Source: an uncultured Clostridiaceae bacterium
GTDB taxonomy: Bacteria > Bacillota > Clostridia > TANB77 > CAG-465
Assembly: GCA_947381905.1 (NCBI GenBank)
Contig: CANCXL010000002.1
Span: 1 to 64,000, forward strand
Direction: 5' to 3'
Length of the DNA stretch: 64,000 nucleotides
Shown in pieces: positions 32,890-47,549 of this stretch. Numbering within the stretch: the stretch's first letter is position 1; every line of letters begins with the position of its first letter. A program made the position numbers and the translations under genes. The notes under the pieces were generated by a model. That model worked only from the letters and a program-made list of their open reading frames with translations. It was not told where the DNA came from and ran no database searches.

Positions 32890-32894
32890 AAAAT

Positions 32895-32979
32895 AAAAAA
32901 GTAAAGGGAGGTTATAAAAACCTCCTTTTACGATACAACATAAGTATATAGGTATTAAAAAAGCCATTTTCCTATATAC
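32895..32979 (-). ncRNA. Tandem small RNA copy A (new family candidate)
   Basis: Minus-strand unit of about 85 nt. Promoter: TTGTAA (plus-strand 33009-33014), 17-bp spacer, TATACT (32986-32991). The predicted RNA begins at a hairpin: GTATATAGG (minus strand, 32979-32971) pairs with CCTATATAC (32952-32944), the loop containing AATGGC and a U run. A 12-19 nt linker leads to a terminator: GTAAAAGGAGG (32931-32921) pairs with CCTCCCTTTAC (32911-32901), then TTTTTT. Shares its loop sequence with copy D. Confidence 0.78.
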
Positions 32980-33018
32980 ATTTATAGTATAACACGATTA
33001 TTATAATTTTACAATACA

Positions 33019-33117
33019 AATAGCTTAAGATTTATCTTAAGCTATTACTAAATAAACATTTAGCTTGGATTACGAAGTAGCCTTTTCAAGAATTATCTCT
33101 AGGGCGCCTTAGAATCG
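33019..33117 (-). repeat. 99-nt structured element X, copy 1
   Basis: 96 of 99 positions match 33252-33350. On the minus strand it holds GGCGCCC, a small TTCG-loop hairpin, a CTAAAT/ATTTAG hairpin and a terminal stem AATAGCTTAAGA with its complement. It lies between the terminator of small RNA B and the promoter of small RNA A. Strand is inferred from its setting. Not recognised as any known RNA. Confidence 0.7.
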
Positions 33118-33125
33118 CTATTTTC

Positions 33126-33211
33126 AAAAAGTAAAAGGAGGTTTTTATAACCTCCTTTTACGTCATACTACAAAGATATATAGGTCTATAAAAACCCATT
33201 CCCTATATATC
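33126..33211 (-). ncRNA. Tandem small RNA copy B
   Basis: Promoter: TTGAAA (plus-strand 33241-33246), 17-bp spacer, TATACT (33218-33223). The RNA starts at the hairpin GATATATAGG (33211-33202) with CCTATATATC (33184-33175), loop containing AATGGG and a U run, followed by the terminator stem GTAAAAGGAGG/CCTCCTTTTAC (33161-33131) and TTTTT. Loop type shared with copy C. Confidence 0.8.
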
Positions 33212-33251
33212 AATTATAGTATAACATAAATTAGATGTATTTTCAATATAA

Positions 33252-33350
33252 AATAGCTTAAGATTTCTCTTAAGCTATTACTAAATAAACATTTAGCTTG
33301 GACTACGAAGCAGCCTTTTCAAGAATTATCTCTAGGGCGCCTTAGAATCG
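33252..33350 (-). repeat. 99-nt structured element X, copy 2
   Basis: Partner of 33019-33117. It differs at three positions, one in a hairpin loop and one that keeps a G-U pair in the TTCG hairpin. It lies 53 nt downstream of the 59-codon gene on the minus strand and may form the 3' end of that mRNA, its last hairpin being followed by a short T-rich run. Confidence 0.7.
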
Positions 33351-33402
33351 ATTTTTATAATGCATAAACATTGAGTCTAAACCTTGTTAATTTAATTAAA
33401 AT

Positions 33403-33582
33403 CTAGTTAAAATAGTTTCTAATTCTGTTGAGTGCATTTTTGGTTATCCACTCAAAATGCTGAGAATTAACATCGTCTGGCAAATCTTCTATGAAATCAT
33501 CTAAAGATTTCCAGATTTCATTAACAATTACTAAGATTCCTTCGCATGGGTTTGCGTCAGAATCATTTTTGTAGTATGTCAT
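33403..33582 (-). CDS. Small 59-residue protein of unknown function
   Basis: ATG at plus-strand 33582-33580 and TAG at 33405-33403. GGAGG stands upstream at the normal distance. The protein begins MTYYKNDSDANPCEGIL, has an amphipathic middle (VIVNEIWKSLDDFIEDLP) and ends ALNRIRNYFN; it is soluble and somewhat acidic. Its start region lies in the loop of a 14-bp stem formed by 33552-33565 and 33601-33614. It is the only apparent gene within the small-RNA cluster. No family recognised. Confidence 0.65.
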   Translation of the reverse strand: MTYYKNDSDANPCEGILVIVNEIWKSLDDFIEDLPDDVNSQHFEWITKNALNRIRNYFN

Positions 33583-33614
33583 TTTTATTCCTCCAAGTTC
33601 TGATTCTAACGCAA
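33552..33614 (-). promoter_or_regulatory. Stem-loop enclosing the ribosome site and start of the 59-codon gene
   Basis: In the minus-strand mRNA, TTGCGTTAGAATCA (33614-33601) can pair with TGATTCTGACGCAA (33565-33552). All 14 positions pair, one of them as G-U. The 35-nt loop contains GGAGG and the ATG; the 3' half of the stem is coding sequence (codons 6-10). This could control translation or mRNA stability. The rest of 33615-33770 is plain AT-rich sequence with a likely promoter containing TATAAT on the minus strand near 33700. Confidence 0.62.
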
Positions 33615-33775
33615 GTATATGCTAGTTTGTATATTAATTGTTCTAGATATTTCTTAAAAATTATTTTATAAAATATAAAACATATAACTTAACTATATTA
33701 TATCACAATTTACATAAAATTTAAAGCTTTGGATTATTTCATGAAAAATATTGAAATATAATTTAATTTGTATAT

Positions 33776-33860
33776 AAAAAAGTAGAAGGAGATTATAAAA
33801 ATCTCCTTCTATGATACATAAAAGATATATAGGTCTATAAAATCCCATTTCCCATATATC
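33776..33860 (-). ncRNA. Tandem small RNA copy C
   Basis: Promoter: TTGAAA (plus-strand 33890-33895), 17-bp spacer, TATAAC (33867-33872). Hairpin GATATATGGG (33860-33851) with CCTATATATC (33833-33824); terminator stem TAGAAGGAGA/TCTCCTTCTA (33811-33783) followed by TTTTTT. The changes in the terminator stem relative to the other copies are compensatory (C replaced by T and the partner G by A), so pairing is kept. Confidence 0.78.
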
Positions 33861-33898
33861 AATTATGTTATAGCATAAATATAACTAATTTTCAACAT

Positions 33899-33946
33899 AA
33901 GTGACACATGTATAAAAAAGTAAAGTGACACATATATAAAAAAGTA
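33899..33946 (+). repeat. 24-bp perfect-length tandem duplication
   Basis: AAGTGACACATGTATAAAAA and four more bases at 33899-33922 are repeated at 33923-33946 with one mismatch (G to A). It sits between small RNA copies C and D and covers the end of copy D's terminator tract. Confidence 0.85.
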
Positions 33947-34021
33947 AAAGAAGATTATAAAATCTCCTTTTACGATACAACATAAGTATATAGGTATTTA
34001 AAAAGCCATTTTTCTATATAC
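33938..34021 (-). ncRNA. Tandem small RNA copy D
   Basis: Promoter: TTGAAG (plus-strand 34051-34056), 17-bp spacer, TATACT (34028-34033). Hairpin GTATATAGA (34021-34013) with CCTATATAC (33994-33986) and a loop matching copy A (AATGGC, U run). Terminator stem GTAAAAGGAGATT (33973-33961) with the region 33956-33944, then TTTTT. Confidence 0.77.
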
Positions 34022-34123
34022 ATTTATAGTATAACATTGTTTTGCTAAATCTTCAACATAAATATCTAATTGGTTTTCTTAAGATTATACATAAACATTA
34101 AAATTACATATTAATTATAATAT

Positions 34124-34146
34124 TTATCATAGTTTTTATCATAGTT
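34124..34146 (+). repeat. 11-bp direct repeat abutting hisS promoter
   Basis: TTATCATAGTT occurs at 34124-34134 and 34136-34146. The second copy runs into the -35 hexamer, so this may be a regulator site or chance in AT-rich DNA. Confidence 0.5.
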
Positions 34147-34173
34147 GACAATAAAAAATAATTATTGTATAAT
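34145..34173 (+). promoter_or_regulatory. Promoter of hisS leader transcript
   Basis: TTGACA at 34145-34150, 17-bp spacer, TATAAT at 34168-34173: a perfect consensus promoter. Confidence 0.88.
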
Positions 34174-34201
34174 ATAACCAGTTGAAAGGAGTAGAATAAA
34201 A

Positions 34202-34267
34202 ATGAATAAACAAATAAAAATAAACACATTAGCACATCATCATATTTATTCTATGTCTGCGTTATAA
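34202..34267 (+). CDS. hisS leader peptide with three consecutive His codons
   Basis: A 21-residue open frame, MNKQIKINTLAHHHIYSMSA plus Leu, starts behind AAAGGAG and ends with TAA at 34265-34267. Three CAT codons lie at 34235-34243. A terminator and then hisS follow. This arrangement fits ribosome-mediated attenuation: slow translation of His codons when charged tRNA-His is scarce should prevent termination. CACATCA at 34233-34239, overlapping the His codons, can pair with TGATGTG at 34302-34308, so a stalled ribosome would block that helix. No T-box sequence is present. The exact antiterminator is not resolved. Confidence 0.72.
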   Translation: MNKQIKINTLAHHHIYSMSAL

Positions 34268-34280
34268 TTTTAAAAATAAC

Positions 34281-34351
34281 TCAGGCATAGTTTGTTGTGC
34301 CTGATGTGTGATATAACTTACACGTAAGGCCAAAAACTTACGTGTTTTTTT
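34281..34351 (+). terminator. Attenuator hairpins and terminator of hisS leader
   Basis: A first hairpin pairs TCAGGCA (34281-34287) with TGCCTGA (34298-34304). The terminator pairs ACACGTAAG (34320-34328) with CTTACGTGT (34337-34345), followed by TTTTTTT. The first hairpin shares bases with the alternative pairing of TGATGTG to the His codons, so the two are mutually exclusive. Confidence 0.85.
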
Positions 34352-34416: not shown

Positions 34417-35733
34417 ATGGAAGAAATAAAAAGAGTTGAACCAAGAACATTAAGTGGATTTATGGAACTATTACCACAAGATCAAATAAAATTTAACGAA
34501 ATGTTACAAACAATAAGAAAAACATATGAATTATATGGATTTTTACCACAAGAAACACCAATAATAGAAGCGTCAGAAGTATTACTTGCAAAAGCTGGAG
34601 GAGAAACAGAAAAGCAAATTTATTCTTTTAAAAAAGGAGATAAAGATTTAAGTCTTCGTTTTGATTTAACAGTACCTCTTGCAAAATATGTAGCAGAATA
34701 TTATAATGATTTAACTTTCCCATATAGAAGATATCAAATTGGTAAAGTATTTAGAGGTGAAAGAGCACAAAAAGGAAGATATAGAGAATTTTATCAATGT
34801 GATATAGATATAATTGGAGATGGAAAATTAAGTATAATAAATGATGCAGAAATACCAAGTATAATATATACAACATTTAAAAACTTAGGATTTTCTAATT
34901 TTGTTATTAAAATAAATAATAGAAAGATACTAAATGGTCTATTTGATGAGCTAGATATTGCTGAAAAAATGACAGATATATTAATAATTATAGATAAACT
35001 TGAAAAAATAGGTATGGAAGCAGTAAAGGAAGAATTATCTAAATTAGGATTAGACAACGATAAGATAGAAAAAATAGAAGAGTTTTTAAATATTTCTGGA
35101 ACAACAGATGAAAAAATAGTAAAACTTAATGAATTAAACTTTAATAGTGAAATATTTAAAAAAGGATTAGAGGAGCTAACAGAAGTAATAAAATATGTTA
35201 GATTATTTAAAGTAGATGAAGAAAACTTTGTAATAGATTTAACAATTGCAAGAGGACTAGACTATTATACAGGAACAGTATATGAGACAAATTTAAAAGG
35301 ATATGAGTCAATAGGCAGTGTTTGTTCTGGAGGAAGATATGAAAATCTTGCAGGTTATTATACTAAAAAGGATTTACCAGGAGTGGGGATTTCAATAGGA
35401 CTTACAAGACTTTTCTATAACTTAAAGGAATTAGGACTTCTTGCAACTAAACAAAAATCTATTTCAAAAATAGATATAATAACAATGGGTGTAGGAGTAG
35501 AAAATGCCGTTGAAATATCTAATGTATTAAGAGACAATAATATACCAAATGAGATATATAAAGAAGATTCTAAAACTAAAGCAAAATTTAGTTATGCAAA
35601 TAATCTTGAAATTCCATATGTAATTGTAATTGGAGAAGAAGAGCTACAAACTAAAAAATATACTCTTAAAAATATGGTTACAGGAGAGCAAGAAATGTTA
35701 ACAATAAATGACATTATATCAAGAATAAAATAA
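34417..35733 (+). CDS. hisS: Histidyl-tRNA synthetase
   Basis: 438 residues; charges tRNA-His. Class II motifs: RFDLTVPLAKYVAE, YRREYQ-type motif 2 RYREFYQCDIDIIG, and the HisRS-specific ARGLDYYTGTVYE and SVCSGGRYENL; a C-terminal anticodon-binding domain (IDIITMGVG onwards) is present. The full set of HisRS motifs argues against the regulatory paralogue HisZ. Expression is probably controlled by the leader-peptide attenuator upstream, which is unusual for this phylum where T-boxes are the rule. Confidence 0.95.
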   Translation: MEEIKRVEPRTLSGFMELLPQDQIKFNEMLQTIRKTYELYGFLPQETPIIEASEVLLAKAGGETEKQIYSFKKGDKDLSLRFDLTVPLAKYVAEYYNDLTFPYRRYQIGKVFRGERAQKGRYREFYQCDIDIIGDGKLSIINDAEIPSIIYTTFKNLGFSNFVIKINNRKILNGLFDELDIAEKMTDILIIIDKLEKIGMEAVKEELSKLGLDNDKIEKIEEFLNISGTTDEKIVKLNELNFNSEIFKKGLEELTEVIKYVRLFKVDEENFVIDLTIARGLDYYTGTVYETNLKGYESIGSVCSGGRYENLAGYYTKKDLPGVGISIGLTRLFYNLKELGLLATKQKSISKIDIITMGVGVENAVEISNVLRDNNIPNEIYKEDSKTKAKFSYANNLEIPYVIVIGEEELQTKKYTLKNMVTGEQEMLTINDIISRIK

Positions 35734-47186: not shown

Positions 47187-47375
47187 ATGAGTGAACAAGG
47201 AAAAAATTCAGTTATAAGTGAAGAAGATAAAAAGGCAATAAGTGACGATTTATCTATGATTCCATATTTGGTAAAATCTATGGAAAAGAATGATTCAAAA
47301 GAAGAAGGAAGCAAATTTTATTTTGAAATGTTAGAAAGAATACTTAATATAGAAAACATTATAAATAAATATTAG
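47187..47375 (+). CDS. Small acidic helical protein, unknown
   Basis: 62 residues, MSEQGKNSVISEEDKKAISD at the start, then amphipathic helices. AAGGGAG precedes the ATG. It lies between a membrane protein and an RNA gene; no family recognised. Confidence 0.6.
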   Translation: MSEQGKNSVISEEDKKAISDDLSMIPYLVKSMEKNDSKEEGSKFYFEMLERILNIENIINKY

Positions 47376-47391
47376 GTATAAAGTAAAGATA

Positions 47392-47420
47392 TTGCAAGAA
47401 AAGGATAAAAATGGTATAAT
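47392..47420 (+). promoter_or_regulatory. Promoter of structured RNA 2
   Basis: TTGCAA at 47392-47397, 17-bp spacer, TATAAT at 47415-47420. Confidence 0.82.
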
Positions 47421-47426
47421 ATAATT

Positions 47427-47549
47427 GTATATAGTAGTAATACTATATATGATTGGCTGTTCAGGGAGTAGAGAAATCTACTCCTATTTGTCTATGGTGA
47501 ATGAATATACAATGTGCAAGGCTAGAGTAGTATCTGCCTTGTTTTTTTT
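47427..47549 (+). ncRNA. Structured small RNA, about 120 nt, upstream of queA
   Basis: No coding frame. Three stems: TATATAGTA/TACTATATA with loop GTAA (47428-47449); GGAGTAGA/TCTACTCC with loop GAAA (47465-47484); and terminator CAAGGC/GCCTTG (47517-47541) followed by eight T residues. About 30 unpaired bases lie before the terminator. It has its own promoter. It could be a trans-acting RNA or a leader that controls queA, which starts 80 bp later behind another TATAAT (47592-47597). It does not match a preQ1 riboswitch by eye. Confidence 0.65.

What the first reader, a model, noticed from the sequence alone, without database searches (positions are those of the whole stretch)
32895..34056. 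Array of four tandem small-RNA genes of an apparently undescribed family
Four minus-strand units at about 33.0, 33.2, 33.9 and 34.0 kb each have a promoter with exactly 17-bp spacing, a start-proximal hairpin with ATATAGG arms, a linker and a terminator. Arms and terminator stems vary with pairing kept (copy C), while two loop types alternate (AATGGC in A and D, AATGGG in B and C). This looks like multicopy regulatory RNAs such as those of Listeria LhrC, with loops as possible target-pairing sites.
Basis: partly seen in the sequence, partly recalled or inferred. Interest (0 to 1): 0.85.

Follow-up and report, generated by a model that had tools for sequence, protein, structure and literature searches.

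The report
Barcoded antisense RNAs guarding small proteins
The four small-RNA genes belong to a previously undescribed family of short antisense RNAs in a genus of gut Clostridia; each type carries two short sequence 'barcodes' that match the start of one particular neighbouring small-protein gene and should switch it off, an arrangement that looks like an unrecognised kind of toxin-antitoxin system, although toxicity has not been tested.

Summary
Four minus-strand units (TSS about 32979, 33211, 33860, 34021) each have an extended -10 promoter with a 17-bp spacer, a 5' hairpin, a linker and a terminator. No Rfam match. The family is dispersed: about 24 copies at ten loci plus one divergent site in this genome. 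It also occurs in 6 of 27 congeners and nowhere else in 385 genomes of the order.

The missing piece is the target. Each main locus holds a small orphan ORF (59-98 aa; here 33403-33582, minus). The sRNA linker is antisense to its AUG and codons 2-6: for 16 of 16 ORFs a local sRNA is the best of 44. The hairpin loop pairs with codons 10-13 (12 of 12 long-loop pairs; z = 7.8). In the mRNA, codons 7-11 pair either with a 5'UTR arm enclosing the start site (11 of 14 pairs covary) or with codons 13-16, placing the second barcode in a hairpin loop. Codons 2-7 are hypervariable; the rest is under purifying selection. In the window only copy B matches the resident ORF; A, C and D are orphans.

Best reading: bipartite antisense repressors of a type-I-toxin-antitoxin-like module with a soluble helical-hairpin protein. 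Pairing is well supported; repression and toxicity are inferred. LhrC-like behaviour is not supported.

The parts
32890..32979 (-). sRNA copy A (orphan specificity: linker TTATGTTGTATCGT, loop AAAATGGC)
   Evidence: promoter -35 at 33014, -10 ending 32986
33126..33211 (-). sRNA copy B: matches the resident 59-aa ORF (linker TTTGTAGTATG, loop ATGGGTTT)
   Evidence: (I19); promoter -35 at 33246, -10 ending 33218
33776..33860 (-). sRNA copy C (orphan linker; loop AATGGG half-matches the resident ORF)
33937..34021 (-). sRNA copy D (same specificity as A: linker identical 16/16, hairpin 36/38)
   Evidence: promoter -35 at 34056, -10 ending 34028
33403..33582 (-). resident small ORF, 59 aa, MTYYKNDSDANPCEGIL..., predicted helical hairpin; putative toxin or effector
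33697..33725 (-). predicted promoter of the ORF mRNA (TTTAAA-17-TATAAT), TSS about 33690
33601..33614 (-). alpha arm in the 5'UTR (TTGCGTTAGAATCA), pairs with beta and encloses SD, AUG and barcode 1
33565..33582 (-). barcode 1: AUG and codons 2-6, antisense to the copy B linker
33552..33565 (-). beta arm (TGATTCTGACGCAA, codons 6-11)
33546..33553 (-). barcode 2: AAACCCAT, antisense to the copy B loop; loop of the alternative beta-gamma hairpin
33535..33546 (-). gamma arm (TGCGAAGGAATC), alternative partner of beta
33251..33356 (-). D4: structured 3'UTR element of the ORF mRNA ending in a terminator-like stem (33279-33252)
33018..33123 (-). duplicate of D4 upstream of copy A

Best explanation
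Each sRNA is a bipartite antisense RNA for a small-protein gene beside it. Its unpaired linker is complementary to the start codon and codons 2-6 (barcode 1). The loop of its 5' hairpin is complementary to codons about 10-13 (barcode 2). In the target mRNA the strand between the barcodes (beta) can pair upstream with a 5'UTR arm (alpha), enclosing SD and AUG, or downstream (gamma), which puts barcode 2 in a hairpin loop ready to kiss the sRNA loop. The sRNA thereby blocks initiation and probably exposes the duplex to RNase III. Extra sRNAs in an array have other barcodes and are predicted to silence other alleles of the same gene. The protein is most likely a toxin, making this a type-I-toxin-antitoxin-like module with a soluble helical-hairpin protein and hypervariable orthogonal barcodes. 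Shown by sequence: both complementarities, the competing mRNA helices, barcode hypervariability. Inferred: transcription, repression, RNase III, toxicity. My estimates: antisense pairing with the adjacent ORF 0.93; negative regulation 0.85; toxin 0.55.
For: Linker: 16 of 16 ORFs have a local sRNA as best of 44; sum of best-local energies -275.5 against -112.8 +/- 7.7 for non-local sRNAs, minimum of 20,000 draws -142.3. Loop: in 12 of 12 long-loop cognate pairs, chosen by linker only, the loop ranks the resident ORF first (ties counted) at a fixed offset of 29-33 nt from AUG; z = 7.8, none of 100,000 permutations. mRNA: alpha-beta 207 of 224 cells paired against 159 +/- 7 with partners swapped, 11 of 14 pairs with double changes; a beta-gamma hairpin in all 16 ORFs, shuffle p <= 0.04 in 15, its loop lying in barcode 2 in the long-loop families; the free minimum-energy fold picks alpha-beta in some mRNAs and beta-gamma in others. 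Window vs C8 ORF: codons 2-7 0/6 aa and 10/18 nt identical, rest 47/52 aa and 143/156 nt; dN/dS of the rest 0.12-0.49 in ten comparisons. sRNA stem covariation. Orphans A and D: linker 16/16 identical although spacer (10/17) and upstream DNA (43/68) diverged. Decayed ORF copies beside intact sRNAs and patchy distribution fit an addiction-type element.
Against: No transcript or toxicity data. The proteins are not hydrophobic (max 19-residue Kyte-Doolittle 1.43), unlike most type I toxins. More than half of the 44 sRNAs have no cognate ORF found here. The loop pairing is absent in the four short-loop (94-98 aa) pairs. B's linker energy to its ORF is second of 92 start regions in the window (-15.1; a 728-aa gene scores -15.5), so the linker alone is not unique window-wide. 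Beta-gamma shuffle significance is modest for the window ORF (p 0.04).
Confidence: 0.66

Rival explanations
1. Antisense-controlled non-toxic module: the same RNA mechanism regulates a small helical protein with another role (regulator, phage-sensing effector, or Rop-like RNA-binding partner).
For: Soluble helical hairpins without transmembrane segments; purifying selection on the protein; no Pfam or NCBIfam hit and no PADLOC hit.
Against: Hypervariable barcodes, tight multilayer silencing, many paralogues, patchy distribution and decayed ORFs beside kept sRNAs are more typical of toxin-antitoxin evolution.
Confidence: 0.25
2. LhrC-like multicopy trans-acting sRNAs that regulate many distant mRNAs through loops and linker.
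For: Multicopy, loops pair with mRNA; A, C and D have no known target nearby.
Against: Each ORF has a dedicated adjacent sRNA matched at two sites; linkers differ between copies, whereas LhrC repeats one UCCC motif.
Confidence: 0.06
3. Ordinary promoter-hairpin-terminator units, chance or transcriptional noise.
For: AT-rich DNA gives many promoter-like sites (19 found, 17 expected).
Against: Stem covariation, two-site complementarity, and identical linkers in A and D despite diverged flanks.
Confidence: 0.02

Closest known systems
AapA/IsoA type I toxin-antitoxin (Helicobacter pylori)
   Same: Toxin mRNA with SD sequestered by structure and transient stem-loops; antitoxin RNA binds by two kissing-loop contacts (PMC8167048).
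   Different: IsoA is cis-encoded and AapA is a small membrane peptide; here sRNAs are adjacent units with own promoters, the proteins are soluble, and contacts are one loop and one linker in the coding region.
Ibs/Sib and ZorO/OrzO type I modules (E. coli)
   Same: Paralogous modules kept orthogonal by variable recognition regions (TRD1+TRD2 in SibC, V1 in OrzO; PMC8309996, PMC3919570); RBS sequestered in zorO.
   Different: Toxins are 19-29 aa hydrophobic peptides; no arrays of orphan specificities that I know of; no homology found.
Cytosolic type I toxins RalR and SymE
   Same: Antisense-controlled soluble protein toxins (PMC8309996).
   Different: They are nucleases; the proteins here are 59-98 aa without a known family.
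LhrC multicopy sRNA (Listeria)
   Same: Several near-identical sRNA genes with 5' hairpin, linker and terminator.
   Different: UCCC motifs against SD regions of unlinked mRNAs (PMC4132741); here dedicated adjacent targets and variable barcodes.

Membership tests
Type I toxin-antitoxin | Antitoxin is an RNA complementary to the toxin mRNA | tested here: met
Type I toxin-antitoxin | Adjacent gene for a small protein under selection as protein | tested here: met
   59-98 aa, dN/dS 0.12-0.49
Type I toxin-antitoxin | Toxin mRNA with sequestered start region (common, not universal) | tested here: met
   alpha-beta helix and SD hairpins, by prediction and covariation
Type I toxin-antitoxin | Protein is toxic when expressed and the RNA neutralises it | not testable with these tools
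   needs expression in a laboratory strain
Type I toxin-antitoxin (membrane class) | Hydrophobic peptide with transmembrane helix | tested here: not met
   max 19-residue hydropathy 0.36-1.43
LhrC-like multicopy sRNA | Repeated UCCC motif in loop and linker binding SD regions | tested here: not met
   no such motif in loop or linker; pairing is to codons
Any Rfam family | Score above gathering threshold | tested here: not met

The most novel reading that the evidence does not exclude
The arrays are a heritable repertoire of antisense 'antidotes': one sRNA guards the resident small-protein gene, while orphan sRNAs with conserved barcodes protect the cell against other alleles of the same selfish gene arriving from related strains.
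Probability: 0.25. Interest if true: 0.88.

Novelty: new variant of a known kind. Interest (0 to 1): 0.8.

Why it matters
It would add a family of antisense-controlled modules in uncultured gut Clostridia, with a soluble helical-hairpin protein instead of a membrane peptide. Target recognition is split into two short, readable barcodes, so specificity and cross-talk between paralogues can be predicted from sequence. The orphan barcodes make a sharp, testable prediction about ORF alleles in other strains.

Tried and rejected
Loop scoring that included stem bases gave a noisy result; it was replaced by a register-locked test on loop bases only. A 5'-3' long-distance helix appears in the minimum-energy fold of the window mRNA, but the best 5'-3' duplex has shuffle p = 0.2: left open. 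Two-state folding with constraints did not enforce the pairs; re-run with enforced pairs for alpha-beta only. Homologues in viral contigs, phages and plasmids: none. The one genome-contig scan found only the rabbit-gut MAG and a short match in a Verrucomicrobiaceae MAG, not followed. Profile comparison of the 59-aa and 66-aa families gave no support for homology. Foldseek gave nothing below E 0.001, including a weak Rop-like hit at E 8.9. Cognate ORFs for orphans A, C and D were not found in the held relatives.

Full report
OBSERVATION. The four minus-strand units exist as described. Predicted starts, 6-7 nt after the -10, are 32979 (A), 33211 (B), 33860 (C) and 34021 (D); terminators end near 32890, 33126, 33776 and 33937. 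All have a 17-bp spacer and a TG before the -10. Promoter-like sites are no commoner here than in shuffles (19 against 17), but terminators are (7 against 0.2). Rfam has no match.

FAMILY. A covariance model of the -10 and 5' hairpin (R1) finds about 24 copies in this genome at ten loci (window 4, C8 4, C9 3, C43 3, C10 2, C22 2, C25 2, and one each in C12, C14, C18) plus one divergent copy at window 47.4 kb. Seven of 28 genomes of the genus, this one included, have copies, and none outside the genus among 385 genomes of the order. G020 corresponds to a rabbit-gut MAG, uncultured Clostridia bacterium Lapin-033 bin11 (same contig numbers and positions). Over 44 distinct hairpins, 98.9% of cells pair and 5 of 8 pairs show double changes.

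THE TARGET. Sixteen small ORFs (59-98 aa; 11 in this genome, 3 in G002, 2 in G020) lie beside the sRNAs. The sRNA linker is antisense to AUG and codons 2-6: for example B TTTGTAGTATG against ATGACATACTACAAA, C43 TCGTGTTTTTTCAT against ATGAAGAAACACGA, C18 ATGAAATTTTCTTTT against AAAAGAAAATTTCAT. Without choosing pairs, the best of 44 sRNAs is a local one for all 16 ORFs; the energy sum is -275.5 against -112.8 +/- 7.7 for non-local sRNAs. Locally assigned pairs fall into two clear classes, matched and not matched.

THE SECOND BARCODE. For the 12 long-loop pairs chosen by the linker alone, the hairpin loop also ranks the resident ORF first (ties counted, since the window and C8 ORFs share this barcode) at a fixed offset of 29-33 nt: B ATGGGTTT against AAACCCAT, L061 AAGGGCTT against AAGCCCTT, C14 TTGCGTTT against AAACGCAA, C18 GTGGTGTT against AACACCAC (z = 7.8). 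The four short-loop pairs of the 94-98-aa proteins show no such match. Array member L025 has a linker for the C10 ORF but a loop for the C43 ORF, so the two barcodes can be reshuffled.

THE mRNA. Between the barcodes lies an arm (beta, about codons 7-11) that pairs with a 5'UTR arm (alpha) enclosing SD, AUG and barcode 1, and alternatively with a downstream arm (gamma, about codons 13-16), which puts barcode 2 in the hairpin loop in the long-loop families. Alpha-beta has double changes at 11 of 14 pairs and loses pairing when partners are swapped (207 against 159 +/- 7 cells). Free folding prefers alpha-beta in most mRNAs and beta-gamma in several, including L013, L044, L050 and L058. Many leaders also carry a terminator-like hairpin with a U-run upstream of alpha (sequence) and SD-masking hairpins.

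THE PROTEIN. Outside codons 2-7 the ORFs evolve under purifying selection (dN/dS 0.12-0.49), while codons 2-7 are hypervariable: window against C8, 0 of 6 residues identical there and 47 of 52 elsewhere. AlphaFold gives two-helix hairpins with disordered N-termini (59 aa: pLDDT 73, residues 1-7 disordered; 66 aa: pLDDT 85, residues 1-11 disordered). There are no family, PDB-sequence or confident fold matches and no membrane segment.

ORPHANS. In the window, only B matches the resident ORF at both sites. A and D share one other specificity (linker identical 16/16, hairpin 36/38) although their spacers (10/17) and upstream DNA (43/68) have diverged, which suggests selection on the RNA or gene conversion. 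C has a third linker. Read in reverse, the linkers predict ORF starts ATGATACAACATAAG (A, D; M-I-Q-H-K) and ATGATACATAAAAGA (C; M-I-H-K-R), the form of the known allele starts (MAQHKY, MSHQRK, MTLHNN). No such ORF is in the held genomes. Decayed ORFs lie beside intact sRNAs at C43:1479-1655, G020:C28:3419-3589 (start codon and upstream region lost) and probably G002:C69:128450-128572.

CONTEXT. The hisS-adjacent site is empty in the 14 congeners whose hisS region could be examined, so the window locus is specific to this genome among those; upstream flanks were at most 1.5 kb. No mobile-element genes were seen beside the loci.

INTERPRETATION. The mechanism most resembles type I toxin-antitoxin: structured, self-masking mRNA as in AapA/IsoA with two-site contact, and variable recognition regions that separate paralogues as in Ibs/Sib and ZorO/OrzO. 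It differs in the soluble helical-hairpin protein, in placing both barcodes inside the coding region, and in arrays of orphan specificities. Toxicity is the untested defining feature, so the module is called type-I-like, not a confirmed member. Paper searches found no description of this family, but the library lacks most subscription journals.

Noticed in passing
window 34145-34345 (+), upstream of hisS 34417-35733: Classic-looking attenuator of hisS: TTGACA-17-TATAAT promoter, leader peptide MNKQIKINTLAHHHIYSMSAL with three His codons, then a terminator. A His-rich leader ('HHHIYSMSA' core in nearly all) precedes hisS in 14 of 15 genus genomes examined; no Rfam family matches.
   Followed up: partly
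window 33251-33356 and 33018-33123 (-): D4, a structured 3'UTR element after the 59-aa ORF, also found after its relatives in C8 and G020; its function is unknown.
   Followed up: partly
window 47187-47490 (+): A second, divergent site: 62-aa ORF weakly similar to the 66-aa family (E 9e-4) followed by a weak sRNA match (38 bits) with a partial antisense match (TGTTCA against TGAACA).
   Followed up: partly
L046 and L052 (G001 and G015): The same sRNA with near-identical sequence downstream of the same 112-aa ORF in two species, without a recognisable small ORF within 1.5 kb: a possible domesticated copy.
   Followed up: no
window 33899-33946: A 24-nt direct repeat (AAGTGACACATGTATAAAAAAGTA, 96% identical) between copies C and D.
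   Followed up: no
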